A stretch of 64,000 bases of DNA from the NCBI RefSeq assembly GCF_001467955.1, contig NZ_LNYR01000046.1:21996-85995 (forward strand), given 5' to 3'. The notes beneath the pieces are model-generated. The model saw only the letters and a program-made list of their open reading frames with translations. It made no database searches and was not told where the DNA came from. The stretch is from Legionella quateirensis. GTDB taxonomy: Bacteria > Pseudomonadota > Gammaproteobacteria > Legionellales > Legionellaceae. This document shows, piece by piece, positions 17,616-38,342 of this stretch; within the stretch, counting starts at the first letter, position 1, and each line of letters begins with the position of its first letter. A program made the translations under genes and the position numbers.

Positions 17616-18440
17616 ATGAGCCAATTTACGACACACATTATTCCTCCCTCAACTCTCACGGACCCTGTACTCTGGTTTATTTTTTTTGGTGAAGAAATTC
17701 TGCTCTATAGCGCACCAGGTCTTACCTCAATTCCTCAATGGATGGACACTAATTTTCTTAGTCCATATATCTCACAACAGCTTTATTTAGGCGTATGGAA
17801 TACAACACATTGCTTTGCTCTCAGTCTGGATAAGGCTCCTGAGTCACTTCCACACAATACTTTTTTCCAACACATACGCCAGGCGCATGAAACCCTAAAT
17901 AATGAGGTCTTATTTAGCATTGTATCGCGGGCAAAACAGCTTTTAAATTGGGATAAAAATACCCAGTTTTGCGGGCGTTGTGGGCAAAATAATCAATTAA
18001 GCAATAAAGAGCGCGCCAAAATATGTTCAACCTGTAGTTTCATGACCTTTCCTCATATATCTCCCGCGATGTTGGTGCTAATTTGGCGCGAAAATCAACT
18101 TTTGTTGGCTCGTTCACCCCATTTTATGCCCGGAGTTTATAGTATTCTCGCAGGCTTTGTTGATCCTGGAGAATCTCTGGAACAAACGGTTGTCCGGGAA
18201 GTAAAAGAAGAAGTAGGAATTACTATAAAAAATCTTCAATATTTTGGCTCGCAGCCCTGGCCGTTCCCTAGCAATTTAATGCTAGGATTTATAGCAGAAT
18301 ACGACAACGGGGAACTTCAATTCGATCCCAAGGAGCTCGAGGATGCTCAATGGTTTTCTCTGGACAAGTTACCAAAACTCCCAAAACCTATAAGTCTTTC
18401 AAGACTTATGATTGATGATTTTTTATCTAGGCAACTGTAA
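17616..18440 (+). CDS. nudC: NAD(+) diphosphatase / Nudix hydrolase
   Basis: A 274-residue NudC-type enzyme that cleaves NAD(H) to NMN(H) plus AMP and in bacteria removes NAD caps from RNA. A zinc ribbon, C-G-R-C plus C-S-T-C, precedes the Nudix domain. The Nudix box G-F-V-D-P-G-E-S-L-E-Q-T-V-V-R-E-V-K-E-E is intact, and S-Q-P-W-P-F-P-S-N is the NADH-specific motif of this subfamily. It overlaps the 3' end of the opposing aminotransferase gene by 14 bases, which marks the edge of the biosynthetic cluster. Confidence 0.95.
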   Translation: MSQFTTHIIPPSTLTDPVLWFIFFGEEILLYSAPGLTSIPQWMDTNFLSPYISQQLYLGVWNTTHCFALSLDKAPESLPHNTFFQHIRQAHETLNNEVLFSIVSRAKQLLNWDKNTQFCGRCGQNNQLSNKERAKICSTCSFMTFPHISPAMLVLIWRENQLLLARSPHFMPGVYSILAGFVDPGESLEQTVVREVKEEVGITIKNLQYFGSQPWPFPSNLMLGFIAEYDNGELQFDPKELEDAQWFSLDKLPKLPKPISLSRLMIDDFLSRQL

Positions 18441-19650
18441 GTTCCTGCCGATGTATGCTCGCAATGCGTGGCGATCTGCGGCTGAAAGCAGGCAAATTGA
18501 TTATAGAATCATTAAGTTTTTTTATACCTAATTGAATCTCTTCACATGAAGGATAGGTGAAATTCAATCTCATAGCTTGTTTGTTAATCGATTTATCCAC
18601 CGCAAACGCAGAGCCCGGTATAAAGAGTGTTTTTGATTTTTCAAACAGATACTCTTTATGCCGTTCTATATTAATATGAGGAAATTCAAGCCAAACAAAC
18701 ATCCCATGTTGCGGTTTCACATAATTAAATTCAATTTCCATATGTTCATTTAAAGCGGTGATCATACATTCCAATTTTTTATTGTATAATTTGACTTGCG
18801 GCTCTATGACTTGGGGCAGAGAAAAAGAGTCCAAAAAACGATTCACCACCAAGTGATTAGGATTAGAAACAGACAGATCATTCATGTCTTTTAACTGCTC
18901 CAACTTTTGAATAATTTCTTTATCCCCGACAATCCACCCTGTTCTTAAGGCTGGTGATATGATTTTTGAAAAGGAACTGATATAAATTGCGTTTTTTGTA
19001 TAAGAACGCATTGGTAAATATTCTTCATCAGAAAAACTTAGAAAGCCATAAGGATCATCCTCGATAATAATGAAATTATATCGATCTGCCAATGCCGCTA
19101 GTTCTTTCCTTAATTGGGTATTCCAGGTTATGCCCTGAGGATTATGTCCATTACACACAATATATAAATAAGGTAGTGTTTTTTTTGTTTTTAAAATAGT
19201 TTCAAGATAATCCAGATCGATCCCTTCATTAAACAGTGAGGGAATGGGTAAATAATTCAAATTAAACAGATTAGCTACTTGCAAAAAACCGGGATAAACA
19301 AACTCTTCGATCAGTAATGAAGCCTTTTCTCTGAACCATAAATGAGCCGTTAGAAAAATACCCTGCTGCGCCCCATTAATGATAAGAATTTCATCCAATT
19401 GACAAGGCACTGATTTCTTAGCCATTATATTTTGTATCTTCGTTTTCAAATGCACTGATGTTGACTGATATTGAAAAGAACGGTCTGATTCCTCAGCCAA
19501 TTGAAGATAAACTTCCTTCAACTGAGACAATGGTAAAACAGAAAGATCCGGTAAACCTGCTGCAAAAGAGATTACATCGTTTTTTTGCGCTAATTTAATA
19601 TAGGTTTGAATTTCTAAGGGCTGTATCCTCTCATTCATGGGCTGTCTCAT
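18427..19650 (-). CDS. hpgT: PLP-dependent aminotransferase (hydroxyphenylglycine transaminase candidate)
   Basis: A 407-residue class I/II aminotransferase without the DNA-binding domain of MocR regulators. Visible PLP-site features are N-G-H-N-P-Q-G (about 167-173), E-D-D-P-Y (197-201), the Schiff-base Lys K229 in S-S-F-S-K, and R236. ATG at 19650 or 19638 are both possible starts. It is the last gene of the operon with the hydroxymandelate oxidase and hydroxymandelate-synthase homologues. In glycopeptide pathways HpgT converts 4-hydroxybenzoylformate to L-4-hydroxyphenylglycine using tyrosine as amino donor, which regenerates hydroxyphenylpyruvate. That role is assigned from context; sequence alone supports only an alpha-keto acid aminotransferase of the LysN/AroT type. 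Confidence 0.75.
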   Translation of the reverse strand: MRQPMNERIQPLEIQTYIKLAQKNDVISFAAGLPDLSVLPLSQLKEVYLQLAEESDRSFQYQSTSVHLKTKIQNIMAKKSVPCQLDEILIINGAQQGIFLTAHLWFREKASLLIEEFVYPGFLQVANLFNLNYLPIPSLFNEGIDLDYLETILKTKKTLPYLYIVCNGHNPQGITWNTQLRKELAALADRYNFIIIEDDPYGFLSFSDEEYLPMRSYTKNAIYISSFSKIISPALRTGWIVGDKEIIQKLEQLKDMNDLSVSNPNHLVVNRFLDSFSLPQVIEPQVKLYNKKLECMITALNEHMEIEFNYVKPQHGMFVWLEFPHINIERHKEYLFEKSKTLFIPGSAFAVDKSINKQAMRLNFTYPSCEEIQLGIKKLNDSIINLPAFSRRSPRIASIHRQELTVA

Positions 19651-19655
19651 TTTAA

Positions 19656-20615
19656 TTATTTATTGAAAAACTTAGGGCTTGCTGAGTAATGGGCAGATGT
19701 TTCCTCCGAAGGCATTGAATTTTTTAATTCATTGACTTGCTCTTCAAGCCGCTCAACCCGCTTAATTAATTCTTCTGTAAGAGACTTTTCTGCCAACTCT
19801 TCAGAAGCAGAACTCCAGGTGTTTCTCAGTGTTTTACAACGAAGATTAATTCCTTTAAGAGTTTCTGGAGTCATTTTAGGTACAACATGACTCAACGCTT
19901 CTTTATTTAAGCGAGAACTATTATGTTCAATCGTAATTGAGAAATAAAAGGGCGGTAGAATAATTTCAGGAGTTACCTGCCCCAGTTCACGACGGTTCAA
20001 CTCTTCAGCAATCATGAATTCAAATTCATTAAAATCAGAGTCATTCAAAGCAGCTAAAGCAGTATCAATGTAGGTTTTCCCATCCAGAATATGATTCATT
20101 TCATGCCATAAAGCGATGGCCGCACTACCACCCAAGGTCAATGTCACTGACTTCATATCCTGACCCGGATCCAAATATTGAACGGTTAATTCTTCAGGGC
20201 TTTGAATCGCACAGCGATTAGGGCATGGAACACTAAGACATCCATGGTCAAATTTTTGCATCCTACTACTTTGTTCCAAAATAATAGGATTAACCATGAT
20301 CATCGCCTGCGGAAAGACTGCCGATGGATATCGCCTCGTAACACCTGCAACATGTTCTTCACTCTCATGAAATACCCCCACAATGGCAAATTGGTAAGGT
20401 CGTTGTATTTCAACACATTGATTCGCAGCAATTCCACCACCACCGGTTTTAATCAATATACTCTTGGCAATATTTATTTGACGGTTTAATTCCAAATGAT
20501 CCTCCGGAGAGGCATCTAGTGGAAACCTTAAGCCAGGCTGATGTAAAACAGGATCACCAATAATTCTTATCCATTGAGAGGTGTTATTAATTAGTCCCGA
20601 GTGTTTTTCTCTCAT
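19656..20615 (-). CDS. Peptide-deformylase-like metalloprotein with C-terminal coiled coil
   Basis: A 319-residue protein, much longer than housekeeping deformylase (about 170). All three deformylase motifs are present: G-G-G-I-A-A-N-Q (motif 1, ending at Q66), H-G-C-L-S (motif 2, C126) and H-E-M-N-H (motif 3, H171, E172, H175), so the metal site looks complete. Motif 2 has His where Glu is usual. After about residue 185 comes an extra domain and a charged coiled coil. It is embedded in the hydroxyphenylglycine operon, in a cluster that also contains a formyltransferase domain. It may remove an N-formyl group from an intermediate or be a resistant deformylase for self-protection; both are inference. 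Confidence 0.82.
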   Translation of the reverse strand: MREKHSGLINNTSQWIRIIGDPVLHQPGLRFPLDASPEDHLELNRQINIAKSILIKTGGGGIAANQCVEIQRPYQFAIVGVFHESEEHVAGVTRRYPSAVFPQAMIMVNPIILEQSSRMQKFDHGCLSVPCPNRCAIQSPEELTVQYLDPGQDMKSVTLTLGGSAAIALWHEMNHILDGKTYIDTALAALNDSDFNEFEFMIAEELNRRELGQVTPEIILPPFYFSITIEHNSSRLNKEALSHVVPKMTPETLKGINLRCKTLRNTWSSASEELAEKSLTEELIKRVERLEEQVNELKNSMPSEETSAHYSASPKFFNK

Positions 20616-20650
20616 TGCTTCACCCCTCTCATATCAATTAAATTCCATAC

Positions 20651-21679: not shown

Positions 21680-21689
21680 GTTTTTTTCC

Positions 21690-22760
21690 TTACAGCTTGA
21701 TAAAATCAGAAGTGATATCTTTAGTACTGGCGCATCCGCATAAAATCATGGTTTCAATTAATTCGCGTTGCAAAATAGAAAGCGCGTGAAAAACACCTTT
21801 CGAGCCGCCCGCAGCTAAAGCCCACAACGCAGCTCTACCGATTAAGGTAGCATCAGCACCTAAAGCTAATGCTTTAAATACATCACTTCCACGAGCAATT
21901 CCGCCATCTAAAAAGAGTTTTACTTTATCGCCAACTACTTGTTTATGCTCTTTCATTATTTCTACTGCGGTACAGCTTGAATCCAATTGCCTGCCGCCAT
22001 GATTGGAAATAATAATGCCTTTAACATTAGGATAACCAAGGGCTATTTCTGTATCACGCGGGTCGAGTATTCCTTTTAAAATAATTGGCAATTGAGTTTC
22101 TTGAGCAAGCCAATCTAAATCATCCCAACTGATTTGATGATCTAAAAGCGTGGAAAGATGTTTTTTTGTTTTCAGACATTGATTAATGGGTATCCCTAGT
22201 CGCTCTAAATGAGCAAAAGAGGTGTTGTCAGGAAACTTTAGAGGTTGCGCGCATTCACGTTCTTTTTTGGCGTAAACAGGTGCGTCAACGGTGACTACCA
22301 AGGCATCAAAATGATTGTCTTGTGCCATTTGAATGAAATTTTTATTTATAGATCTATCTTGTAAAAAATACATTTGCAACCACAATGGCCCTTTTTTATT
22401 TTGAGCCACTAAAATGTGATCAACGGAAGCAAACATACTCAATATCATAATCGTATTGAATTGATTTGCTGCTTCAAGCATATCCAACTCACCTTTTGGT
22501 GACAGAAGCCCATGATAAGCTGATGGAGCTATTAGAACAGGTGTAGAAAGGTTGTGTCCGAATATCTGTGTTTGAGCAGAAATTTCACCCAATCCACGCA
22601 GAACTCGAGGTACTAGTCTTATGTCATTCAAGTGTTGTCGGTTTCTTTTTACTGCAAGCTCATCCAAACTTCCGCCATCAATGAACGAAAAGACATCCGC
22701 TGACACAAGAGTTCGGGCTTTTTCATAAAAAGATTGAAGACTTGTTAATTCTTCAAGCAT
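21690..22760 (-). CDS. hmo: FMN-dependent alpha-hydroxy acid oxidase (4-hydroxymandelate oxidase candidate)
   Basis: A 356-residue TIM-barrel flavoenzyme. The start at 22760 (M-L-E-E-L-T-S) is chosen for the GGAA upstream and family length; a frame from 22847 would add 29 unrelated residues. Signatures include F-I-D-G-G-S-L-D-E at the N-terminus, S-N-H-G-G-R-Q-L-D (catalytic His and Arg) and D-G-G-I-A-R-G-S-D-V-F-K-A-L-A-L-G-A, with the F-Y-E-K-A-R family start. The family includes lactate, glycolate and mandelate oxidases. Here it lies 11 bases upstream of the hmaS homologue, so oxidation of 4-hydroxymandelate to 4-hydroxybenzoylformate is the contextual assignment. Confidence 0.83.
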   Translation of the reverse strand: MLEELTSLQSFYEKARTLVSADVFSFIDGGSLDELAVKRNRQHLNDIRLVPRVLRGLGEISAQTQIFGHNLSTPVLIAPSAYHGLLSPKGELDMLEAANQFNTIMILSMFASVDHILVAQNKKGPLWLQMYFLQDRSINKNFIQMAQDNHFDALVVTVDAPVYAKKERECAQPLKFPDNTSFAHLERLGIPINQCLKTKKHLSTLLDHQISWDDLDWLAQETQLPIILKGILDPRDTEIALGYPNVKGIIISNHGGRQLDSSCTAVEIMKEHKQVVGDKVKLFLDGGIARGSDVFKALALGADATLIGRAALWALAAGGSKGVFHALSILQRELIETMILCGCASTKDITSDFIKL

Positions 22761-22918
22761 ATTATTGTTCCATTTTTTTATTTTTTTTCCAAAGTCTTGC
22801 AATATTATTACATACAAATGCTCCAGAATAAAGCAAGGTGAATTCATTGCGATCTACTAGATTTTTATTGGGCACAACACAGTAGCCATTGCTTGATCAT
22901 CATGCTTAAAAAACAATC

Positions 22919-22948
22919 TTGACACTCCAACATGTATGATCAGATAAT
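22919..22948 (+). promoter_or_regulatory. Sigma-70-type promoter for the NTF2-like/monooxygenase operon
   Basis: TTGACA at 22919-22924, an 18-bp spacer, and GATAAT at 22943-22948. It is about 65 bp upstream of the first ATG of the plus-strand operon, in the divergent gap with hmo. Confidence 0.7.
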
Positions 22949-22957
22949 CGCCAACAC

Positions 22958-22983
22958 GAACTAAATCAGTGTCGATTTAGTTC
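22958..22983. promoter_or_regulatory. Perfect 10-bp inverted repeat, operator candidate
   Basis: GAACTAAATC (22958-22967) and GATTTAGTTC (22974-22983) are exact reverse complements with a six-base spacer. The dyad lies just downstream of the predicted -10 and before the ribosome site. It could be a repressor operator at the transcription start or a 5' UTR hairpin. Confidence 0.75.
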
Positions 22984-23011
22984 TTTAACAATCATTCTCC
23001 AGGAGTTGGTG

Positions 23012-23395
23012 ATGGATAAAAAAGCACTTGAAGTGTTTATTGCTGATTTTTATCAAGCATGGAAAAATCGTGACGAAGAAAAAATTCCTACTTTTTATGA
23101 TGAAAATATTCGTGCTTATTCGGATTTTACTGAAATAACCTTGAAGGATATTCTAAATCGTCTGGAGTTCTCAAAAACTAAATTTGCTGAAGTCAATTAC
23201 ATTATTGAAGACCAATTTATTGATGAAGCAGAGGGTAAAATAGCAATTCGGATGAAACAACGTCACATACTTAAAGATGGTGGCTTAGTAAAATGGGAAT
23301 CGATTATGCATTATAAAATCGTTAACCATAAAATCACTGAACTATGGATGTCTTTCTATCCAAATGCCGATTATTTAAACAATGATCAATTCTAA
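23012..23395 (+). CDS. SnoaL/NTF2-like small protein
   Basis: A 127-residue protein. The ATG at 23012 has AGGAG six bases upstream; an in-frame TTG at 23006 is less likely. The N-terminus, F-I-A-D-F-Y-Q-A-W-K-N-R-D-E-E-K-I-P-x-F-Y-D-E-N, is the classic SnoaL/NTF2-like cone-fold opening, and the later W-E-S-I-M-H-Y-K-I strand also fits. Such proteins act as cyclases, isomerases or hydrolases in natural-product pathways, or merely bind ligands. It is the first gene of a three-gene operon overlapping the flavin monooxygenase by 14 bases. The reaction cannot be predicted. Confidence 0.8.
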   Translation: MDKKALEVFIADFYQAWKNRDEEKIPTFYDENIRAYSDFTEITLKDILNRLEFSKTKFAEVNYIIEDQFIDEAEGKIAIRMKQRHILKDGGLVKWESIMHYKIVNHKITELWMSFYPNADYLNNDQF

Positions 23396-24959
23396 TTATG
23401 AAGTCATTATAGTTGGGGGCGGCCCTGTTGGAATTGCCCTTGCTATAGAATTAGGATTGAACCAGGTTAAAACTCTGGTTCTTGAAAAATATGCGAAGCC
23501 ATTGAAAATGCCACGCGCACAATCATTATCGGCCCGCACTATGGAATTTTTTATACGTTGGGGTGCAGACATGGCTCTTGAAGAGAGTCTATTGCTCCCC
23601 AAAGATTTACCTCAAACTGGAATTTGGTGTTCTACCTTATGCGGAGAAACCTATTTTGAAACAGCATGGGGCGATAATCAACTAAAAGAAAATGCCTCCC
23701 CTAAAGCAGGTGTTCGATCCCCTATATGGATTACAGAAGAGGTGCTGCGTACGAGGCTACAGGCGTTTCCAAGTGTTGATTTTCTTAAAGAACACGAAGT
23801 CCAAGACATACAAATTGATAATAAGATTGTCTCTATCACTTCTTTTGATAAAAACAGCCAACAGAAAAAGGTTCATCAAGCAAACTACCTGGCCTGTTGT
23901 GACGGGAGTACCGGCCCGACAAAACAACTGTTTAATAATTGTTACAACACGATGTCAGATGCCACAAAAATGCTGGGTACGATGTTCATTTCTAAAGAAC
24001 TGATGCAACTAAAAACTGTTCCTGATGGCATTATGTATTTCGTATTGGCAGAGGGTGCTATGGCTTTTGTAGGCCCTATCGATCTGCAAGAAGGACTATG
24101 GCTAGCACAAATTGTCTGGAATAAACCAGAAGATCCAGATGAACTTTCAATTTCCTCAATAATCGATGCTATTGTGGGTATTCCCATTGAAAAAGAAATA
24201 GTTGATTTTAATATATGGGATATGCAAGTTAAAATTGCGGATTTTTTCAATTTTAATAATCAAGTTTTTTGGTTAGGAGATTCCGCTCACGCTTTTGCTC
24301 CCACCGGAGGATTGGGCTTAAATACGGGATTTGGTGATGCTCATAATTTGGGTTGGAAATTAGCTGCAGTTATTCAAAACAAAGCTTCAGCCAAATTACT
24401 TGAGACTTATGCAAAAGAACGTCATCCAATATGGCTAAGTAATCTGAATTTTGCGGGAAATAATGCGTTAGAGTTTTTAGAACTAAAGAAAAAATATCCC
24501 CCTGAAGTAGATTATAAAGCATATACCATGGCTTATGCTGATTTAGGAAACCGCTATTTAAGATCCTCAGGCCTTACTTTAGGGTATGCGTATTTCGACT
24601 CCCCATTAACTCAATTAATGCCCCAGCAAGTGCAAGAAAATAATCCATTTGAATATACCCCTAAAACCGAACCGGGATATTTTTTGCCTCATGCCATACA
24701 TCAAAACGACACTATTTACGCCACGTTATCCCCTACTCTATGGAATCTTATTGTTTGTGATTCAGATCCAGTTCAAGAGTCTGAAAAGAAAAAAATTGCA
24801 GATGTATTTTCCTTGGATGATATTCACATTGTGAAAGTAGCTGCGAATACTTACCCCTATTCTTATCTTTTATTACGGCCTGATTGGCATATTGCCCGTT
24901 TGGGAAATAGTCTTGACAGTATCGCCGGCTCTATACAGGAGAAGCTCCAATGCGCTTGA
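23382..24959 (+). CDS. Class A FAD-dependent aromatic monooxygenase (PheA/TfdB-type)
   Basis: A 525-residue flavoprotein. An N-terminal Rossmann motif reads V-G-G-G-P-V-G-I-A-L-A-I-E-L-G (about 11-25) with acidic E35 later. The second FAD motif is G-D-S-A-H-A-F-A-P-T-G-G-L-G-L-N-T-G-F-G (around residue 300). Length and the C-terminal extension resemble phenol hydroxylases and polyketide hydroxylases such as MhpA, PgaE and RdmE. The start overlaps the upstream gene and its end overlaps the formyltransferase start by 10 bases, so it is translationally coupled. The probable substrate is a phenolic or peptide intermediate of the cluster; that is inference. Confidence 0.88.
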   Translation: MINSNYEVIIVGGGPVGIALAIELGLNQVKTLVLEKYAKPLKMPRAQSLSARTMEFFIRWGADMALEESLLLPKDLPQTGIWCSTLCGETYFETAWGDNQLKENASPKAGVRSPIWITEEVLRTRLQAFPSVDFLKEHEVQDIQIDNKIVSITSFDKNSQQKKVHQANYLACCDGSTGPTKQLFNNCYNTMSDATKMLGTMFISKELMQLKTVPDGIMYFVLAEGAMAFVGPIDLQEGLWLAQIVWNKPEDPDELSISSIIDAIVGIPIEKEIVDFNIWDMQVKIADFFNFNNQVFWLGDSAHAFAPTGGLGLNTGFGDAHNLGWKLAAVIQNKASAKLLETYAKERHPIWLSNLNFAGNNALEFLELKKKYPPEVDYKAYTMAYADLGNRYLRSSGLTLGYAYFDSPLTQLMPQQVQENNPFEYTPKTEPGYFLPHAIHQNDTIYATLSPTLWNLIVCDSDPVQESEKKKIADVFSLDDIHIVKVAANTYPYSYLLLRPDWHIARLGNSLDSIAGSIQEKLQCA

Positions 24960-27418: not shown

Positions 27419-27450
27419 CCCGATTTCACAGGGCTATATTGTTTTGTTTA
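27416..27450. terminator. Hairpin terminator between convergent cluster operons
   Basis: TAGCCC (which includes the TAG stop) pairs with GGGCTA across a nine-base loop and is followed by T-rich sequence. It lies between the plus-strand formyltransferase operon and the minus-strand SDR gene. Confidence 0.7.
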
Positions 27451-27488
27451 TTTGATCGAACAGTTAAACAGATCCTTTATCGCGACAC

Positions 27489-28295
27489 TTATAATGTGCA
27501 CTGAACTCTCAATTCAGTGCGCTTTGCCGTAACAATCTCAGGCTCGGGGTACGCTTCCAAGACACTGCCATCATAGAGATATAAAGAGCATTGCTTATGT
27601 TTTCTTACATCATGGATTACTTTTACCATCCCGGCAACGCTCTCAGAAACAGTTAATGGACTTGTTGGGCCGCCCATATCGGTTTGTACCACACCCGGTG
27701 AGATTGGAAAGGCACAAGGCCTATCATCGACAGCACCGCCATTGACAAACCATTCTTTTGCTAACTCAATGTTCCAATTTTGAAATAGGATGTTGCCCGC
27801 AGCTTTACTTGCTCTATAAGATTGATATCTTCCTTTTAAATTATTAGCAGAGCTACTTAAAGTAGAGCTCATATAAACGGCACAACTATGAGGATGCAGT
27901 ACCTTGGGAAATAACGTTCTCATGATTTGATCTGGAGCAAAAGTATTCACTTCCATAGTTCGGCGTATGTCCTCAACTCGTTCAGTTAATGGTTGAGAGC
28001 CAGGAGGACAAAGAATAATTCCAGCATTCAAAATAAGAATATCAATCGGTCTATGAATTTTATCTTTAAGTAGATCAACCGCTTCATAGTCTGTGGTTTC
28101 CAATTCGCTGAGTTCTAAACGCCCAGCATATTCCTCTTTTAATACTCTTAACCCATCCCATTTTCCATTATTTCGATACGTTGCAAGTACATTATGGCCT
28201 TGAGTCAAATATTCTTTTACAAAACCCAAACCAATACCGCGGCTTGCACCAATCACCACTACATTTAATGGCATTACACACTTCTTAAACATCAT
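27489..28295 (-). CDS. Short-chain dehydrogenase/reductase
   Basis: A 268-residue classical SDR. The cofactor motif is G-A-S-R-G-I-G (about 17-23), then L-N-A-G-I, S-S-T-L-S-S and Y-R-A-S-K, the catalytic Tyr-Lys pair. It overlaps the end of the C-A-PCP-R NRPS gene by 11 bases and is the last gene of that operon. A reductase acting on the aldehyde or ketone released by the NRPS is the most likely role. An alternative start at M8 (M-P-L-N-V-V-V-I-G) is possible. Confidence 0.88.
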   Translation of the reverse strand: MMFKKCVMPLNVVVIGASRGIGLGFVKEYLTQGHNVLATYRNNGKWDGLRVLKEEYAGRLELSELETTDYEAVDLLKDKIHRPIDILILNAGIILCPPGSQPLTERVEDIRRTMEVNTFAPDQIMRTLFPKVLHPHSCAVYMSSTLSSSANNLKGRYQSYRASKAAGNILFQNWNIELAKEWFVNGGAVDDRPCAFPISPGVVQTDMGGPTSPLTVSESVAGMVKVIHDVRKHKQCSLYLYDGSVLEAYPEPEIVTAKRTELRVQCTL

Positions 28296-31200: not shown

Positions 31201-32730
31201 AGAGGCCCATTGATTACTTTTCTTATCAATTGTTTCATAGTCATATCGATTAGTACCAAATACTAAACCTATATTTTTAGGATAATGTGACGCTGTCTGC
31301 GAAAATAATTCACCTAGAGATTGTGTCACCTCTCGCCCTAGTTTTGCTGTAAAAAATCGCTCCTTCATGTGTTGCTTTCGACCATCATCCAGAAGACTAA
31401 AAGAACCTAACACCTGTTCAGGACTATTAAGTATATTCTTGAGTAAAATTTTAAAACTTGTAGCAAATTGCTCAATGAGCTCACGATCAAATAAACAATC
31501 TCGATACTCAAAGTAACCAATGACTTCTTTCTTTTCTTCCAACATAAAAAGAGACACATCAAATTTTGATGTTTTTGTGTCATAGTGTTGTTGAAGCTGA
31601 GCGTTAATTCCATCAAAACTCAACTGCAATTTATCGGTACTGCCCCAAACAAAAAGTGTTTGGATGAGAGGATGTTGACCAGCAGCCCTTCTTTCCAGGT
31701 TAAGCTTTGGTGCAATATGCTCAAAAGAAACACTTTGCCTGGACAGATAAGCAAAAATTAGTGATTTAACTTTGATTACTAAATCCAAGAAACTATTCTG
31801 TTCTTCTAAAACCAAACGAACAGGCATAGTATTGATAAAATAACCTATTATTTCTTTCTCAAGATCAGACTCACGATTTGCAAAAGGCACACCAATAACC
31901 ACATCATTACTGCGAGTATAATGACTGATTAATAAAGCATAAACAGAATATAAAACGTGAAACACTGTTGCTCTATGCGCTTTAGAAAAGCAGATCATTT
32001 GTTCATAGAGTTCGTTTTCAAGAGTAAAATAAACACGATTTCCTGAGTAAATATCTTTCTGTTGACTTGAGGGTGTAGTTAAAAAATTTAAACCAGAATA
32101 ACTCTTTAATTGCTCAGCAACTTGCTCAACCTGCTCCTGATAGTCCGCGGTAGCATAATTCTCCTGCTCAAATAACACATGAGTGTAAAAAGATGTTCTC
32201 GTAAGTTCTTCCTGCACTTCTCCGCGCATTATTTGACTATAAAAAGTATTTAAGTCATCAACCAAAATAGAAAACGAGGTGCCATCAGTAATAATATGAT
32301 GCAAAACGATAACAAGAACATGCTCACTTTCGTTTTTTTTAATCAACGACACCCTCATTGCAGAAGCGTTCATCAAATTAAAAGGCTTGGCAATCTCCTG
32401 GTTAATGTATGCTGTTATTTCTTCTTCATCATTTAATTCCACTAAATGAAAATCCAGGGATGCCGATTGATGAACTGACTGCAATAAATTGCCTTCATCA
32501 TCAGTATTAAAGGAAGTACGCAAAATATCATGTTTTTGCATTAAAAGCGTAAATGCTTTTTTTAAGACATTAATCGGTAAATAACCCTCAAGGGTATAAA
32601 TTAAAGGTTCATTATAAGCAGACTGTGCACATCCACCCATAGAATGAATAAACCAAAGTTCTTTTTGGCCTATAGAGAGTTCAAAAGATTGAGCAAGATC
32701 GTGCTTTTGTTCGAAGTACTCATATGCCAT
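28285..32730 (-). CDS. NRPS module C-A-PCP with terminal thioester reductase (R) domain
   Basis: 1481 residues. The condensation domain has an intact H-H-I-I-T-D-G (144-150). The adenylation domain has Y-T-S-G-S-T-G-K-P-K-G (629-639), F-D-I-S-V-W-E, N-L-Y-G-I-T-E-T and N-G-K-I-D-R (Lys977). The carrier Ser is S1034 in L-G-G-N-S-L. From about 1110 a reductase domain starts with G-V-T-G-F-L-G-A-H and has Y-L-T-T-K. R domains release the chain with NAD(P)H as an aldehyde or alcohol instead of hydrolysing it. Specificity residues read by eye are D-I-W-T-V-F-L-V-Y-K, which match no code I know; the surrounding sequence is closest to Thr-type domains. The start overlaps the upstream hybrid gene by 11 bases. 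Confidence 0.93.
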   Translation of the reverse strand: MAYEYFEQKHDLAQSFELSIGQKELWFIHSMGGCAQSAYNEPLIYTLEGYLPINVLKKAFTLLMQKHDILRTSFNTDDEGNLLQSVHQSASLDFHLVELNDEEEITAYINQEIAKPFNLMNASAMRVSLIKKNESEHVLVIVLHHIITDGTSFSILVDDLNTFYSQIMRGEVQEELTRTSFYTHVLFEQENYATADYQEQVEQVAEQLKSYSGLNFLTTPSSQQKDIYSGNRVYFTLENELYEQMICFSKAHRATVFHVLYSVYALLISHYTRSNDVVIGVPFANRESDLEKEIIGYFINTMPVRLVLEEQNSFLDLVIKVKSLIFAYLSRQSVSFEHIAPKLNLERRAAGQHPLIQTLFVWGSTDKLQLSFDGINAQLQQHYDTKTSKFDVSLFMLEEKKEVIGYFEYRDCLFDRELIEQFATSFKILLKNILNSPEQVLGSFSLLDDGRKQHMKERFFTAKLGREVTQSLGELFSQTASHYPKNIGLVFGTNRYDYETIDKKSNQWASYIRAKYKQLYNQELVSDTLIALCVDRNEDMIFGMLGILKAGAAYVPVDPQYPQERINYIINHSKASLLLTHKKQDALNLEFSTTHTIYMDDTSIAVSPDFVNRALNHRVNPKDIAYVLYTSGSTGKPKGVAVTHENVNCLFASLDKQFNLNNNDVWSLFHTFCFDISVWEIWGAFLYGGSLIVIPYEVTRDTKQFYDLIAAEQVTVLTQTASAFQLFINEDLRSNKKLESLRYVGFVGESLKVSILRPWVEKYGTEQPRLANLYGITETTVYTNYKFVTQQDIDKGRDNIGWPLEEFSMCVLDHNNEWCPVGIVGEICIGGRGLSRGYLYRDDLTKEKFFPDPYASYLGLPEGALLYRTGDLGRWMEDGSIEYLGRKDFQIKLRGFRIELGEIEAALGSFDGITHTVVLLKGVGDSAYLAAYYTTKPGVAIENNALMAHLKSFLPDYMVPKIVTELPSFPMTVNGKIDRNVLNQRHDIPTSTQAIIPLRSQLEHEIAAIWAGILKVPLDVIGSSSNFFELGGNSLLVVKMLTQLNNKLKMDFLLGRFIAAPTIATLSAQTDTHYDTTKDVREFCDRLDNDRVLAENIRPLKETNPNILNPKNILITGVTGFLGAHMLFELLNTTEAQIYCLIRASSKEEALHRIVMKQKHYKLVPAHSNRIIPVLGDLNQPQLGLSEHDFEFLAKEIDSIMHVGAWVHHIYDYSLLYHSNVQSVKEALKLAVSVKNKALHFVSTLAAGVISPVKRLPGLSPDSIEAQLSFNGYLTTKWVAEQLLKEANERGIVAHVYRPGNIIAGINGIYEPGDNHTLLRLKGLLQLEKGFIGSQEQVEMMPVDLLSQAIINLSQRPNLFSYNLNNIKTILWSDYLQLAKNFGFCFQALDDEEQWNNIINNLDEDNALYKLSHFYKIRTNARETDLESTTIAPDYEIITPSYQEMIEQQFHSLITSGFLEKPQRMDCTKAVIEPEVMSYDV

Positions 32731-35700
32731 GTTCAGCCACCCTGGAATTAATATATTGAATCATTGAACCAAATTCATTGTATTGAGTAAGCTCTTCTAA
32801 ATGGAATTTGGCGGAAAACGCTCTTTTTATATAATTGAACAAATCAATGTAGGAGAGCGAATCGCCCCCTAGCTCAAGAAAATTAGACGATTCATGCAAC
32901 TCTGCCGCAGCAACTCCTAATGCTTTCGACCACATATCTTTCAATTGCTTTTCTAATGACTGCGATTCTTTGATTTCGCTGGTTTGTATCGATGGAGCAA
33001 CTTTTGACGCATTTATTTTAGGCAAGCAATAATATTTTCTGGTAAAGCAATAGGTGGGAATACTTGTCTTTTGAGAAGAATGTGCCTGTTTATTAAATTT
33101 CTCCCAAATGATTGGCAACTCTTGAGTCCAGAGCATGCCCGCCATCTGCAAATAAAGAAGCTCAACTACTTCCACGAATTGATTCAATTCTGCTTGATCA
33201 TAAGAATGCTTATCAAAAAATTTCTCTATTGATGAAAGCAATCGAATCAACAACTCGCCAAACCCAAAAAAGAGATAGGCTACATCCCAATATTCGTCAT
33301 CATTTAAATAAGATGAAATAAAACGAATATCTTCACTTTTTGAGATTGCTGATACAAGAAAATAGCCTCTGTATTTAAATTCTGCGCGTCCACATTGTGC
33401 AGTGTAGGCCACATTAGGCAGATTCATTGCGGAGCATCCATCCAGATATTTTTTAAATTTGGTTGCCATCGCATACAAGGACTCCCTGGTTTTTGCTGAA
33501 AAAGGAATCAAAAAATAGCCTGGTTCGAAATTTTGTTCTAAGGACTCAGAATACTCTTCAAGAATCATATGAGCATTCGTTCCACCAAGACCAAAAGAGC
33601 TGATTGCAGCACGTCTAAGTCCTTCACAATCCCATTCCATGGTTTTATTAGAAACACGAAATAGTTGATTAAATGAAGCAATTTCAGGATTAAGCGTTTC
33701 AAAATTAAGAGTAGCTGGAAGTATTTTATTGTTTAGTGCTAATGAAGTCTTTATCAAGCCAAAAACGCCAGCAGCCGAATCGGTGTGCCCTATATTGGTT
33801 TTCACAGAGCCAATCGTACAATAGTCATTTTTATTACTATACTTTTGATACACCTGATGCAAAGCAGTCCATTCAATAGGATCGCCAAGCATAGTACCCG
33901 TACCATGAGATTCAATATAAGTGATGGTATCAGGCGTTACCTCAGCATTTTTTAATGCTTTTTCTATTACCGCAGATTGGCCTGTAACACTGGGAGCTGT
34001 AAAAGCCATTTTGGAAGAACCGTCGTTGTTAATAGCTCCGCCTTTAATTACCGCGTAAATAGTATCTTTTTGAGCAATCGCGTCACTAAGGCGCTTTAGA
34101 ACAACGACACCTACCCCACTAGTAATGACTGTACCTTTAGCTCGTGCATCAAATGCACGGCAATATCCATCCGGAGACTCTATCAACTGTTCTTGATAAG
34201 GGTAACCATAATTATAAAAAAGAGACACGCCCCCTGCCAGAGCCATATCACATCCCTTTGTTTTCAAATTCTCACAGGCCATCTGGATTGCGACTAGTGA
34301 ACTTGAACAGGCTGATTGAAGTGTAATGCTTGGCCCGGTAAGGTTTAATTTAAAGGACACTCGGGTACTCAAAAAATCCTTTTCATTTCCCAATATTGCT
34401 TGAAATAAATTCGGATCACTAACGGCTTGGTTGTACACGTGATCCATAAAATAAGTATTTCTTCCCTGGGTTGCAAAAACACTGATGTCCCCATCGAAAT
34501 GATCTGGAATATTCCCACTGTGCTCTAATGCTTCCCAGGCACATTCAAGAAATTGACGGTGCTGTGGATCCATGATTTCAGCATCTTTTACTGAATATCC
34601 AAAAAAATCCGCATCAAAATGAAAACTATCGTCAAAAATAGCACCGCGTTTCACATATGAAGTACTTGCAATTAACGTATCGGATATTCCATGCTCTTGT
34701 AACTCATCTTGAGTAAAATCACGTATATTTGTTCCTGCTGTTTTAATAAGATTCCAAAATGACTCTGCATCTTTAGCCCCAGGCACACGACAAGCCATCC
34801 CAACTATTGCAATAGATTCATTAATGTTCGGCTCAGGATCACTGAACATGTTTTCAGTGCTGCATTTAAACTTATTCATGCCACCTGAAGCCTTGAGTAA
34901 CTCGACTATACGCCCTGATAATAACGATAATGTGGTGTACTGAAATATCTCGACGATATTAATTGTAACCGAAAAAGCATCCTCTAATTCTTTACGAACC
35001 ATCATAGCAGCAAGCGAATTCCCGCCTAGATCAAAAAAGGATTGTTCCTCACTAAAATTTTGAATATTAAGTGTACGCGACCAGATATCATAAATTGTCT
35101 GCGCAACCGATTGTGATTTAACTGGTTTATTATTTGGGCTTATTGCTTCAGTTAAAATAGGCTTGGGCAAGGCTTTTCTGTCTAGTTTACCGTTGGTAGT
35201 TACAGGTAACGTATGTAAATGCACAAAGACACTGGGTATCATATAATCAGGAAGCGTTAACGATAGGTGCTCACGAATTAAATGTTCATCTAATTTTTGT
35301 GACGAAACATAATATCCTGCCAAATAGGAAAAATTGTCATTTTGTTGTAACAACACAACACTGTGCTGAATCTCAGGGTACTCAACCAGTCTGGTTTCAA
35401 TTTCTCCCAGCTCAATGCGGTATCCACGGAGCTTCACCATAAAATCATTGCGACCTATATATTCAAGATTTCCACCCTGTAACCATTTTACTAAATCATT
35501 GGTCTTATAGATTAAAGGGTAATTACATCCACTTTCATTAAAATAAAGGTTGGGAATGAATTTATCTTGAGTCATTTCAGGGTGATTCAAATACCCATTT
35601 GACAAACTTGTACCGCCCACATAAAGCTCACCCGTTACACCAATTGGTAACAGCTGCAAATGTTTGTCTAAAACAAAACCCACTCGATTCGAATACGGTC

Positions 35701-36760
35701 TACCGATAGGTACTGAATTTAATAAACTAAAATCCTCTTCGATGGTGTAAGTAGTACAAAAGGTACTGTTTTCAGTAGGCCCATAAGCATTAATTAAAAG
35801 TGAAGGTTTATAGGGTGATTGAGACAATTTTAGCATAATATGTTTTGTTAATGCTTCACCACCAACCATCATCATACGAACTTCTGAAAAAACGGTTTCA
35901 TCAAGAGTAAACAACAGATCAAACAGTGCCCGAGTCAATAATATAACGGTTAATTTTTTTTCTTTAACTGTTGTTTTAAACAACTCGGGATTTGATAATA
36001 AATCAAAAAAATTGTCAGGAATAAATAAACTGGCACCACTTAATAAGGCCCCCCAAATTTCCGTTGTTGTAGAATCGAATGATACATCTGAAAAAAATGC
36101 CACCGTATCTGTCTCATCCGCACTAAAATAGCTTGCACAGACGGTTTGTGAAATAAGAGTGATGTGCTTTGCTAACACTCCCTTTGGATTTCCAGAGCTT
36201 CCTGAGGTGTAAATAACATATGCTAAATTATTGGGGTTTAAAGGTACATGTAGATTTTCTTTGGATTCATTGAAATGAGGCTCCAAATTCATTAAAAAGA
36301 GATGTTCATCATAAGCTTGGAATTTATCAAATAAATGGGTGTCTGTGAGCATTAATTTGCTCTGGATATCAGATAAAATATAGCTTATTCGAGTATCGGG
36401 ATACTCGGGATTAATGGGAACATAAGCGCCCCCTGCCTTGAGTATGGCTAATATCCCAATAACAAAATCAGCACTTCTTTTTAGGCAAATTGGAATTAAT
36501 GTATCGGGTGTTAACTCAGTTTGTGTGACTTTCTTATATTGGCTGCGTATTGTGCGCGCTAATTGATTCGTAAGTTCATTTAATGCGTTGTAACTTAAAA
36601 GACGGTCTTTATAAATTAATGCCGTTTGATTGGGAACACGTGCAACCTGAGCCTCAAACAATTGACACGTTGTTTTTACATCAAAGGAACCTGCTTCCAA
36701 CTCTTTAGGACCACATTGAACTTGGAGGTATATATCAGAACACTCTATAGTTGAAGTCAT
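32720..36760 (-). CDS. NRPS-PKS hybrid: A-PCP-KS-ACP loading/extension protein without AT
   Basis: 1346 residues from the ATG at 36760 (a TTG six bases earlier is in frame). It starts directly with an adenylation domain (Y-T-S-G-S-S-G-N-P-K-G about 184-194; N-A-Y-G-P-T-E; N-G-K-L-D-R), so it is a loading module. Carrier Ser582 lies in L-G-G-N-S-L. The ketosynthase is complete: C818 in S-A-C-S-S-S, H952 in S-H-G-T-G-T, H992 in N-I-G-H. The roughly 200 residues after the KS contain no acyltransferase G-H-S-x-G motif. A final carrier has Ser1301 in L-G-G-D-S-L. Malonyl would have to be supplied in trans. Specificity residues read D-S-T-L-M-V-A-T-F-K. It probably loads an amino acid, possibly the arylglycine made by the neighbouring operon, and extends it once. 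Confidence 0.93.
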   Translation of the reverse strand: MTSTIECSDIYLQVQCGPKELEAGSFDVKTTCQLFEAQVARVPNQTALIYKDRLLSYNALNELTNQLARTIRSQYKKVTQTELTPDTLIPICLKRSADFVIGILAILKAGGAYVPINPEYPDTRISYILSDIQSKLMLTDTHLFDKFQAYDEHLFLMNLEPHFNESKENLHVPLNPNNLAYVIYTSGSSGNPKGVLAKHITLISQTVCASYFSADETDTVAFFSDVSFDSTTTEIWGALLSGASLFIPDNFFDLLSNPELFKTTVKEKKLTVILLTRALFDLLFTLDETVFSEVRMMMVGGEALTKHIMLKLSQSPYKPSLLINAYGPTENSTFCTTYTIEEDFSLLNSVPIGRPYSNRVGFVLDKHLQLLPIGVTGELYVGGTSLSNGYLNHPEMTQDKFIPNLYFNESGCNYPLIYKTNDLVKWLQGGNLEYIGRNDFMVKLRGYRIELGEIETRLVEYPEIQHSVVLLQQNDNFSYLAGYYVSSQKLDEHLIREHLSLTLPDYMIPSVFVHLHTLPVTTNGKLDRKALPKPILTEAISPNNKPVKSQSVAQTIYDIWSRTLNIQNFSEEQSFFDLGGNSLAAMMVRKELEDAFSVTINIVEIFQYTTLSLLSGRIVELLKASGGMNKFKCSTENMFSDPEPNINESIAIVGMACRVPGAKDAESFWNLIKTAGTNIRDFTQDELQEHGISDTLIASTSYVKRGAIFDDSFHFDADFFGYSVKDAEIMDPQHRQFLECAWEALEHSGNIPDHFDGDISVFATQGRNTYFMDHVYNQAVSDPNLFQAILGNEKDFLSTRVSFKLNLTGPSITLQSACSSSLVAIQMACENLKTKGCDMALAGGVSLFYNYGYPYQEQLIESPDGYCRAFDARAKGTVITSGVGVVVLKRLSDAIAQKDTIYAVIKGGAINNDGSSKMAFTAPSVTGQSAVIEKALKNAEVTPDTITYIESHGTGTMLGDPIEWTALHQVYQKYSNKNDYCTIGSVKTNIGHTDSAAGVFGLIKTSLALNNKILPATLNFETLNPEIASFNQLFRVSNKTMEWDCEGLRRAAISSFGLGGTNAHMILEEYSESLEQNFEPGYFLIPFSAKTRESLYAMATKFKKYLDGCSAMNLPNVAYTAQCGRAEFKYRGYFLVSAISKSEDIRFISSYLNDDEYWDVAYLFFGFGELLIRLLSSIEKFFDKHSYDQAELNQFVEVVELLYLQMAGMLWTQELPIIWEKFNKQAHSSQKTSIPTYCFTRKYYCLPKINASKVAPSIQTSEIKESQSLEKQLKDMWSKALGVAAAELHESSNFLELGGDSLSYIDLFNYIKRAFSAKFHLEELTQYNEFGSMIQYINSRVAEHGI

Positions 36761-36782
36761 ATTCAAAAACCCGTTTAAAATT

Positions 36783-36800
36783 TAATTATAATTATCATTG
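36783..36800 (-). promoter_or_regulatory. Possible promoter -10 / AT-rich regulatory site of the NRPS operon
   Basis: On the minus strand the sequence reads AATGATAATTATAATTAAA about 20 bases before the ATG. It contains TATAAT, a plausible -10, and two GATAAT-like hexamers that faintly resemble a Fur box. No convincing -35 is seen. Confidence 0.3.
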
Positions 36801-36850
36801 CCTCCGTTCGATTTAGGTTAAACATCCTTACTGAATCACATACACTGCCG

Positions 36851-37093
36851 ATGTACCCTCATAATTTAGATGAATTAAAACGCTCGCTCCGAGTAAATAA
36901 AGAGCCTAAAAACAGCAGGGTGCTCAATTTACGAATACCCCCCTTACGAGAAAGCGACAATACATTATTCAATTATAAAAAGAGTCCTCAGGACAAAAGT
37001 ACTCTTCGCAAGACAGTTAAAATCCAGCAACCCCCTGGGAAGATTATGTCTAGAGTTTCAGGTGTGTTGATAGATAGAAAAAATCACGATTAA
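36851..37093 (+). CDS. Doubtful small basic protein
   Basis: An 80-codon frame in the 337-base gap between the hybrid NRPS gene and the MFS gene, pointing away from the NRPS operon. The product is Lys/Arg-rich with no membrane segment. There is no ribosome site before its ATG and I recognise no family. It may be real, or the gap may be only a promoter region. Confidence 0.25.
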   Translation: MYPHNLDELKRSLRVNKEPKNSRVLNLRIPPLRESDNTLFNYKKSPQDKSTLRKTVKIQQPPGKIMSRVSGVLIDRKNHD

Positions 37094-37097
37094 AATC

Positions 37098-38342
37098 CTA
37101 TGATTCAACCAATCCTAATTGTTGATTTTTTGTTTTAACACTTCGTAAAGCTAAAATACCCACTACGATAAACACACCACTAACAACAAAAGCAAAACTG
37201 GATCCATACTGATTCAAAGCACCAGTCAACAACGGGCCAACACCCCAGGTAACAGAGGATAAGGCCGCAACCACACCCATAACTCGTCCTTGCCAATCAC
37301 TTTCTGTACTATCTGAAATCAAAGTCAATAAAGCGATATACATCAATCCCGCAAAAGCAGAAATACAAGTAAAGAGAACTATGTTCACTACAAAAGAATC
37401 AATGCAAAGAGATAAAAGAAGATAAGAACACAATTGCAATACTAAAGTTAAAAAAACCACTGTAGTCTTTTCAAGGTAATTAAAAATATATTTTCCACCA
37501 AACATCAATGTCAATGAAAAAACAATGGCTTCTGTACTTAGTACAGTTCCTGTGGCCGAAGCATGATCTGAAAATTGTCGGCTTAAAAACACCGGAATAT
37601 CTGAAAAAAATAAACCAAAAGCCACCATAGAAAAGAGTAAAGAAACGAGATAACTGGATAATACAGGTTTCTTAAAGGCAATTTTTATATTTGCAAAATC
37701 CTTCAAAAAATTGAACTTCTCCCCTTTTTTACTAGGTGCATAAGTTTCATCAAAGAAAAGCGTAATTCCAATAAAACCAATAGCGCTCATCAACGCACCA
37801 ATTAAGAAAGTAGTAGTACCCAAAGGCGCATAACTCGAATTAAGTAATAGATCGCCCAAAACGGGTCCTAAAGAAAAACCAAGGCAGTTCGCGAGCATCA
37901 CGATAGATAAATTGAATGCTTTATTTTGGGGAGTACTGATATCAACAGTAGCGGCTTGAGCAATGGATAAAGAACCAGCAGTGATACCTGAAATAATACG
38001 ACCGACTACCAAAAGCCAGATAGCGCTGAAGTAGCAACCTAAAGCACCTAAAATAAAGCCAAAAGTCAAACCCAACATGGAAATTATCAGACCAGGTTTT
38101 CGTCCATAACGATCTGCTACCCCTCCCAGAACTGGAGCAAAGAAAAACATAAACACACTGTAAATAGCGAGTAAAAACTCATAGATCATATATCTGGAAG
38201 CATCAGATACAGTAGCTGGTAATAGAGAAACGTTATCTGTTAGAAATAAGGCAGCAAAAACTGAGAACGCAATCCCCCATCCCATAGAATCTACAAATAC
38301 CACCCAAATTAAAGAAGATAAGCTGATGTTTTTTTTATTCAT
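37098..38342 (-). CDS. Major facilitator superfamily exporter (DHA1/TetA-like)
   Basis: A 414-residue protein with about 12 hydrophobic segments in two halves. Motif A reads G-G-V-A-D-R-Y-G-R-K-P-G (about 74-85), and V-G-R-I-I-S-G-I-T-A-G follows in TM4. This is the drug:proton antiporter type. It precedes the NRPS-PKS operon on the same strand, so export of or resistance to the cluster product is the likely role. Legionella siderophore exporters are also MFS proteins, so metallophore export remains possible. Confidence 0.88.
   Translation of the reverse strand: MNKKNISLSSLIWVVFVDSMGWGIAFSVFAALFLTDNVSLLPATVSDASRYMIYEFLLAIYSVFMFFFAPVLGGVADRYGRKPGLIISMLGLTFGFILGALGCYFSAIWLLVVGRIISGITAGSLSIAQAATVDISTPQNKAFNLSIVMLANCLGFSLGPVLGDLLLNSSYAPLGTTTFLIGALMSAIGFIGITLFFDETYAPSKKGEKFNFLKDFANIKIAFKKPVLSSYLVSLLFSMVAFGLFFSDIPVFLSRQFSDHASATGTVLSTEAIVFSLTLMFGGKYIFNYLEKTTVVFLTLVLQLCSYLLLSLCIDSFVVNIVLFTCISAFAGLMYIALLTLISDSTESDWQGRVMGVVAALSSVTWGVGPLLTGALNQYGSSFAFVVSGVFIVVGILALRSVKTKNQQLGLVES

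What the first reader, a model, noticed from the sequence alone, without database searches (positions are those of the whole stretch)
18427..38342. Arylglycine-linked NRPS-PKS cluster in a Legionella-like genome
Seen: a hydroxymandelate-oxidase homologue, an HPPD-family dioxygenase with HmaS-like residues and an aminotransferase in one operon, close to an A-PCP-KS-ACP / C-A-PCP-R assembly line, SDR, flavin monooxygenase, formyltransferase and MFS exporter. Known: HmaS-Hmo-HpgT make 4-hydroxyphenylglycine, found chiefly in actinobacterial glycopeptide, CDA, nocardicin and feglymycin pathways. Inferred: this gammaproteobacterium makes a short, reductively released peptide-polyketide containing (hydroxy)phenylglycine, possibly formylated and hydroxylated. 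That combination is new to me.
Basis: partly seen in the sequence, partly recalled or inferred. Interest (0 to 1): 0.93.

Follow-up and report, generated by a model that had tools for sequence, protein, structure and literature searches.

The report
Legionellaceae arylglycine peptide-polyketide gene cluster
A conserved gene cluster found so far in four Legionella-family genomes looks set to make a small peptide-polyketide from a rare phenylglycine-type amino acid, by a route best known from antibiotic-producing actinobacteria but with an altered first enzyme.

Summary
The cluster is real and larger than described (window about 15289-39911). The dioxygenase groups with 4-hydroxymandelate synthases (HmaS), apart from HPPD (support 100/98), and carries HmaS-type residues. 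The gene set recurs in three genomes of the genus Tatlockia: HmaS-type gene in 1 of 45 genomes of the window's genus (its own) and 3 of 22 of Tatlockia, apparently spread horizontally. Four other Legionellaceae genomes have a second lineage of Hmo-HmaS-AT operons; in one the nearby NRPS has an Hpg-like code. The '4-hydroxyphenylglycine' reading is doubtful here: in all four window-type enzymes HPPD's polar Ser/Asn/Gln/Gln network is Ile/Val/Pro/His, while the other lineage keeps Ser, Gln, Gln, and neither adenylation domain has an Hpg code. I favour a non-hydroxylated arylglycine (phenylglycine) combined with one malonate-derived unit and a further amino acid, formylated in trans and released by reduction. 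The HmaS-Hmo-AT logic is known; host, pocket and combination are new as far as my searches reach. Substrates and product are inferred.

The parts
21690..22847 (-). Hmo-like FMN 2-hydroxyacid oxidase (true start probably internal; homologues 356-370 aa)
   Evidence: PF01070 E 2.7e-107; 72% to three homologous clusters; the only strong FMN_dh match in its genome, 359 bits against 56 for the next. Arg of the GRR/GKR motif is Lys in window and L065
20651..21679 (-). HmaS-type dioxygenase with altered substrate pocket
19656..20615 (-). divergent peptide-deformylase homologue, in the window's cluster only
   Evidence: PF01327 E 2.1e-16; motifs GGGIAANQ, HGCLS, WHEMNH read; relative at 50% over residues 8-260 in G005 outside any cluster; no hit in the stretches of the three other clusters
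18427..19650 (-). class I/II aminotransferase (alpha-aminoadipate/LysN-like)
   Evidence: PF00155; nearest solved structures 1x0m, 3aov and similar; 63-67% in the other clusters
23006..23395 (+). SnoaL-like small protein
   Evidence: PF12680 E 1.7e-4, below cut-off; 73-88% in the other clusters
23382..24959 (+). FAD aromatic-hydroxylase-type monooxygenase
   Evidence: PF01494 E 1.1e-52; 64-69% in the other clusters
24950..27418 (+). formyltransferase fused to a vestigial adenylation domain
   Evidence: PF00551 E 3.7e-21 plus AMP-binding positions 1-80 only; INYHDS.LP and D.G motifs in 4 of 4, A3/A5/PCP motifs in 0 of 4, present in full-length relatives G013 and G022
27489..28295 (-). SDR oxidoreductase
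   Evidence: PF00106 E 2.9e-20; 62-70% in the other clusters
28285..32730 (-). NRPS C-A-PCP-R
   Evidence: Pfam Condensation, AMP-binding, PP-binding, NAD_binding_4; A code DIWTGVLVY
32720..36766 (-). hybrid A-PCP-KS-(AT remnant)-ACP
   Evidence: Pfam; KS Cys/His/His motifs in 4 of 4, no acyltransferase active-site motif found in 4 of 4; A code DSTLMGATF
37098..38342 (-). MFS exporter
   Evidence: PF07690 E 5.8e-49; 66-77% in the other clusters, two of the three copies cut by the stretch end; 79% over the whole length to L152
38406..39911 (-). calcineurin-like metallophosphoesterase, conserved neighbour
   Evidence: PF00149 E 1.3e-9; 63% in the Tatlockia MAG contig, 56% in G163; G164 stretch ends before it
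15289..17262 (+). conserved ORF without a named family; lies inside the cluster in the three relatives
   Evidence: 48-54% in three clusters; no Pfam model over its cut-off, no NCBIfam match

Best explanation
A horizontally spread Legionellaceae biosynthetic cluster. An HmaS-type dioxygenase oxidises an arylpyruvate (most likely phenylpyruvate) to a mandelate, the FMN oxidase gives the phenylglyoxylate, and the aminotransferase gives an arylglycine (most likely phenylglycine). The hybrid module loads one amino acid (A1) and extends it with one malonate unit supplied by an acyltransferase in trans; the formyltransferase formylates the loaded amine in trans; C-A-PCP-R adds a second amino acid (A2) and releases the chain as an aldehyde (or alcohol), which may cyclise. 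The arylglycine enters at A1 or A2; I cannot tell which. SDR and flavin monooxygenase tailor, MFS exports. Shown by sequence: gene set, domains, motifs, conservation, HmaS clade, altered pocket. Inferred: every substrate, the site of loading, formylation in trans, the trans acyltransferase, the product.
For: HmaS clade apart from HPPD 99/96 and 100/98 with more rows of its own kind; joining the window type to HPPD rows rejected, AU p 0.012 and 0.0046. HmaS-type residues Ala163, Cys165, Val216, Ile333, Tyr337 with Fe ligands His161, His239, Glu318. Same gene set in G163, G164, G172. All four share Ile201, Val216, Pro224, His238 where the other lineage keeps Ser, Val or Thr, Gln, Gln. Both A codes are kept between window and G172 and lack the His278 of the Hpg modules DIFHLGLLC and DAVHLGLLC read from A. 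orientalis. HmaS of S. coelicolor turns phenylpyruvate into (S)-mandelate in vitro (PMC3720870, passages), and an artificial HmaS-Hmo-aminotransferase set makes phenylglycine in E. coli (PMC7089894, passages).
Against: No chemistry is shown. The window-type branch is long (2.79, 1.93), its place inside the HmaS clade is unresolved, and the AU tests were framed after the first tree. Asn332, whose counterpart Asn423 in plant HPPD holds the phenol hydroxyl (PMC6750108, passages), is kept, so a 4-hydroxy substrate is not excluded. Neither A domain joins the arylglycine modules in a tree of 26 A domains; by BLAST A1 is nearest among the seven A. orientalis modules to module 1 (Leu by my knowledge), A2 to modules 4, 7 and 5 (Hpg, Dpg, Hpg; 244, 234, 233 bits against 210-227), a small margin. 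The PKS has no acyltransferase of its own, and a trans partner was not sought. Lys for Arg in Hmo could mean altered chemistry.
Confidence: 0.6

Rival explanations
1. One reading: the trio makes 4-hydroxyphenylglycine from tyrosine-derived 4-hydroxyphenylpyruvate, and the pocket changes are neutral or compensated.
For: HmaS clade and signature; Asn332 retained; a related Legionellaceae operon in G147 sits near an NRPS with an Hpg-like code DIFHAGLIL; A2 is by BLAST slightly nearer to the Hpg and Dpg modules than to the other four.
Against: Four network positions altered in all 4 window-type enzymes; A codes not Hpg-like; A2 does not join those modules in a tree.
Confidence: 0.22
2. The trio works on another 2-oxo acid (aliphatic, indolepyruvate or a ring-modified arylpyruvate) and supplies a different one-carbon-shorter amino acid.
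For: Pocket residues changed in the dioxygenase and one active-site-region Arg in the oxidase of window and L065; a flavin monooxygenase of the aromatic-hydroxylase kind is present.
Against: Aliphatic oxo acids are very poor substrates of S. coelicolor HmaS (PMC3720870, passages); Ser to Ile should narrow the pocket, against indolepyruvate (inference).
Confidence: 0.15
3. The deformylase is a self-resistance copy and the product is a peptide-deformylase inhibitor, as in the lydiamycin and gammanonin clusters.
For: A deformylase homologue in the operon; cluster-borne deformylases are described as guarding makers of such inhibitors (PMC12130866, PMC12690207, passages); reductive release would give a short peptide aldehyde or alcohol.
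Against: No hit in the stretches of the three homologous clusters; the nearest relative, in G005, stands alone; motif II has His for Glu and motif III Trp and Asn for Gln and Asp (read).
Confidence: 0.1
4. The deformylase is a biosynthetic enzyme: the formyl group is a temporary protecting group put on by the formyltransferase and taken off by the deformylase.
For: Both enzymes present; Cys, both His and the catalytic Glu of the deformylase kept.
Against: Three of four clusters have the formyltransferase and no deformylase hit in the stretch compared.
Confidence: 0.1

Closest known systems
HmaS-Hmo-HpgT 4-hydroxyphenylglycine supply of actinobacterial glycopeptide-type clusters (e.g. Amycolatopsis orientalis, L074; PDB 2r5v)
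   Same: Dioxygenase clade and signature residues; FMN oxidase; aminotransferase nearby; coupling to NRPS
   Different: HmaS identity 27-33% to actinobacterial rows; four network residues altered; aminotransferase 22-24% to those near four actinobacterial HmaS genes but 33-39% to proteobacterial operon copies; no Hpg code in the NRPS
Pgl pathway to L-phenylglycine in Streptomyces pristinaespiralis (PMC7089894, passages)
   Same: Proposed end product
   Different: Pgl goes through phenylacetyl-CoA and benzoylformyl-CoA; the window has HmaS and Hmo instead. That 2020 paper calls pgl the only known natural route and the HmaS-Hmo route artificial
Legionella monomodular formyltransferase NRPS clusters C, G, I (PMC5126622, section 17 read)
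   Same: Formyltransferase-NRPS type of enzyme; full-length relatives of the window's gene are in its genus; reductive release in cluster C
   Different: In the window type the A domain behind the formyltransferase is vestigial in 4 of 4 clusters, and the assembly line is a separate hybrid
Hmo-HmaS-AT with C-A-PCP-R in G147 (unnamed Legionellaceae genome)
   Same: Same trio, nearby reductase-terminated NRPS
   Different: HmaS pocket with Ser, Gln, Gln; Hpg-like A code; no match to the window's PKS part, formyltransferase or flavin monooxygenase in the 40 kb compared

Membership tests
4-hydroxymandelate synthase (HmaS) | Two-His-one-Glu iron site in the vicinal-oxygen-chelate fold | tested here: met
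4-hydroxymandelate synthase (HmaS) | Groups with HmaS and not HPPD in a tree | tested here: met
   99/96, 100/98; alternatives with HPPD rows rejected, p 0.012 and 0.0046; long branch; the HPPD rows themselves fall in two groups
4-hydroxymandelate synthase (HmaS) | HmaS-type residues: Ile for Phe at 333, non-Asn at 216, IDHxAxC | tested here: met
   Ile333 in 23 of 23 HmaS rows against Phe in 15 of 15 HPPD rows; Asn216 in 0 of 23 against 15 of 15; A..C in 22 of 23 against 0 of 15 (the window is one of the 23 and has all three)
4-hydroxymandelate synthase (HmaS) | Pocket Ser/Thr201, Gln224, Gln238 | tested here: not met
   Ile, Pro, His in window and L065 and in 4 of 4 window-type clusters; among the 23 HmaS rows Ser/Thr201 in 21, Gln224 in 19, Gln238 in 21
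4-hydroxymandelate synthase (HmaS) | Makes 4-hydroxymandelate from 4-hydroxyphenylpyruvate | not testable with these tools
   Needs chemistry
HPPD | Asn216, Phe333, Phe337 and the Ser267-Asn282-Gln293-Gln307 network of plant HPPD | tested here: not met
   Val, Ile, Tyr; network Ile-Val-Pro-His; the genome has a separate HPPD with HPPD residues (L001)
NRPS module for 4-hydroxyphenylglycine | A-domain code like DIFHLGLLC or DAVHLGLLC | tested here: not met
   DSTLMGATF and DIWTGVLVY; seven A. orientalis modules read with the same ruler as control
NRPS module for 4-hydroxyphenylglycine | A domain in one clade with arylglycine A domains | tested here: inconclusive
   A1 and A2 group with other Legionellaceae A domains, weakly supported deep forks; the A. 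orientalis arylglycine modules group with module 1; A2 slightly nearer to them by BLAST
Trans-AT type PKS module | Intact KS, no working cis acyltransferase | tested here: met
   KS motifs 4 of 4, acyltransferase motif found in 0 of 4; KS clade and trans partner not tested
Formyltransferase-NRPS of Legionella (cluster C kind) | Formyltransferase in cis with working A-PCP | tested here: not met
   A3, A5 and PCP motifs absent in 4 of 4
Deformylase self-resistance clusters | Deformylase constant in the cluster | tested here: not met
   In 1 of 4 homologous clusters, within the stretches compared
HpgT-type aminotransferase | Same clade as actinobacterial HpgT | tested here: inconclusive
   22-24% to aminotransferases near HmaS in four actinobacterial loci, 34-37% to three proteobacterial operon copies; no tree built

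The most novel reading that the evidence does not exclude
The first natural HmaS-Hmo-aminotransferase route to a non-hydroxylated arylglycine (L-phenylglycine), evolved by stripping the HPPD/HmaS hydrogen-bond network, in Legionellaceae, feeding a trans-AT hybrid with formylation in trans and reductive release: a new class of N-formyl peptide-polyketide aldehyde with a phenylglycine unit, or of the heterocycle it closes to.
Probability: 0.35. Interest if true: 0.75.

Novelty: new variant of a known kind. Interest (0 to 1): 0.62.

Why it matters
Arylglycine supply by HmaS and Hmo is known to me from actinobacterial antibiotics. Finding it in two lineages of Legionellaceae, one with an Hpg-like NRPS code nearby in one genome and one with a rebuilt pocket, gives a natural experiment on what sets HmaS substrate choice and points to unexplored small molecules of this family. 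If the window type makes phenylglycine, nature would already have the pathway that engineers assembled artificially.

Tried and rejected
Dioxygenase as ordinary HPPD: rejected by tree and residues; the genome holds a separate HPPD.

Formyltransferase gene as a fresh pseudogene: rejected, A3, A5 and PCP motifs are missing in all four clusters while the formyltransferase motif is intact.

Cluster as a peculiarity of one genome: rejected. Cluster as a genus-wide trait: rejected, 1 of 45 and 3 of 22.

Deformylase as a constant part: rejected (0 of 3 relatives). Its G+C content (0.397) lies within that of the genes measured beside it (0.31-0.408), so composition gives no sign of recent entry.

A wider survey of the phylum with the alphaproteobacterial enzyme: 1 of 398 sampled genomes matched at E 1e-50 or better, and that protein (G548) has HPPD residues, so it added nothing.

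A1 as the loader of the arylglycine, my first idea: dropped. By BLAST A1 is nearest to A. orientalis module 1, and A2 to modules 4, 7 and 5 by a small margin; a tree of 26 A domains places neither with them. In that tree the G147 domain with the Hpg-like code is also unplaced, on a long branch.

Paper searches: Legionella with hydroxyphenylglycine (1 paper, off topic), Legionella with phenylglycine and nonribosomal (1 paper, a review of actinomycete polyketides), HmaS with proteobacteria (20 of 45 listed) and hydroxyphenylglycine with HmaS, gene cluster, Gammaproteobacteria (13 of 14 listed) showed no title on an arylglycine cluster in this family.
Full report
WHAT IS THERE. On the minus strand run Hmo-like oxidase, HmaS-type dioxygenase, deformylase, aminotransferase; on the plus strand SnoaL-like, flavin monooxygenase, formyltransferase; on the minus strand again MFS, A-PCP-KS-ACP, C-A-PCP-R, SDR. 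The deformylase (19656-20615) was not in the finding. It lies 35 bases behind the dioxygenase and 5 before the aminotransferase.

WHERE ELSE. The window's genome is a Legionellaceae member: it shares the family of G172, whose contig of 232328 bases equals in length that of the Tatlockia record found by name, which the tree tool lists under Legionellaceae. An HmaS-type gene is in 1 of 45 genomes of the window's genus, its own (E 1e-32 or better), in 3 of 22 of the Tatlockia genus (1e-40) and in 8 of 143 of the order (1e-45 with the G052 protein); the thresholds were set to exclude HPPD, and weaker relatives could be missed. In the three Tatlockia genomes the same set is syntenic: aminotransferase, dioxygenase, oxidase, SnoaL-like, monooxygenase, formyltransferase, SDR, the 657-residue ORF, both synthases and MFS, at 42-88% identity. 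The metallophosphoesterase was seen in two of three; the stretch of the third, G164, ends inside MFS. No deformylase was hit in the stretches compared. For 12 of 12 genes the window is closer to G172 than G172 is to its congeners G163 and G164, two of them by only one point. With the patchy presence this suggests horizontal spread; no species tree was built.

SECOND LINEAGE. G052, G134 (its contig length equals that of the L072 record), G122 and G147 carry Hmo-HmaS-AT without the other cluster genes. In G122 a large NRPS frame of at least 4746 codons begins about 1 kb away; in G147 a C-A-PCP-R begins about 4 kb away. In G052 and G134 no homologue of the window's synthases appears in the stretch held, 33 kb beside an operon at a contig edge and 20 kb of a 30 kb contig; G052 and the L072 genome still have 17 and 15 condensation-domain matches. 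An alphaproteobacterial MAG has HmaS and aminotransferase near NRPS genes (L070).

OXIDASE AND AMINOTRANSFERASE. The oxidase is the only strong FMN_dh match in G000, G092, G052 and the L072 genome, and G022, without HmaS, has none of that strength. The family is broad, solved lactate, glycolate and other hydroxyacid oxidases score as high as or higher than Hmo itself, and no tree was built. Lys replaces the Arg of the GRR/GKR motif in window and L065 (G163 and G164 not looked at). The aminotransferase resembles alpha-aminoadipate/LysN-type enzymes.

ASSEMBLY LINE. KS motifs are intact in 4 of 4; the acyltransferase is a remnant, longer in G163 and G164, without an active-site motif. A-domain codes, read with a ruler recalled from memory and checked on the seven A. 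orientalis modules (DIFHLGLLC and DAVHLGLLC at modules 4 and 5, the Hpg positions by my knowledge of vancomycin), are DSTLMGATF (A1; DSFLLGATF in G163 and G164) and DIWTGVLVY (A2; DIWTSVMVY). An earlier, looser reading gave DSFLLGAFC for G163 A1; I use. G147 gives DIFHAGLIL, six of nine with the Hpg code. Which domain takes the arylglycine is open: by BLAST A2 ranks the arylglycine modules 4, 7 and 5 first (244, 234, 233 bits against 210-227), A1 ranks module 1 first, and a tree of 26 A domains puts A1 and A2 among other Legionellaceae domains with weak deep support.

FORMYL CHEMISTRY. The formyltransferase keeps its catalytic motif in 4 of 4, while A3, A5 and PCP motifs are gone; full-length relatives in G013 and G022 have them. 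It would act in trans. Legionella formyltransferase NRPSs are in print as cluster C, with G and I very similar (PMC5126622, section 17). The deformylase keeps Cys, both His and Glu but departs from motifs II and III as given in PMC12690207 (passages), and has Gly at a hydrophobic place of motif I. Its only near relative in the 57 genomes searched is a lone gene in G005. Cluster-borne deformylases are known as self-protection (PMC12130866, PMC12690207, passages), which makes it a lead, not a conclusion.

NOVELTY. The held library showed no paper on arylglycine clusters in Legionella or on a proteobacterial HmaS pathway (titles and abstract starts of the papers listed). Most subscription papers and all preprints are missing from it. 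PMC7089894 (passages) calls pgl the only known natural phenylglycine pathway, as of 2020. I rate this a new variant of a known kind: known chemistry, new host and a changed pocket.

Noticed in passing
L207:4929-9302 (G147): C-A-PCP-R synthetase with Hpg-like code near an Hmo-HmaS-AT operon, with asparagine-synthetase-like, enoyl-CoA-hydratase-like and peptide-transporter-like ORFs (my reading of the translations) between: a separate small cluster.
   Followed up: partly
L204 and L205 (G122:C19:520761-535000): NRPS frame of at least 4746 codons, running off the stretch, about 1 kb from an Hmo-HmaS-AT operon.
   Followed up: partly
L070:1346-3632: Alphaproteobacterial MAG with HmaS-type and aminotransferase genes near a phosphopantetheinyl-transferase-like ORF (my reading) and NRPS genes; no Hmo hit in the piece held.
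   Followed up: partly
L170:9418-10722 (G005): Second member of the extended deformylase family (50% over residues 8-260), standing alone.
   Followed up: partly
L040 (G005:C3:137175-137876): Match to the formyltransferase part with three in-frame stops, probably a remnant.
   Followed up: no
L066, L067, L071: Micromonosporaceae HmaS genes just downstream of a ketosynthase-like gene.
   Followed up: no
window 17616-18440: NUDIX (NudC-like) gene beside the aminotransferase; in G163 a 63% homologue lies between MFS and the metallophosphoesterase, so it may travel with the cluster.
   Followed up: partly
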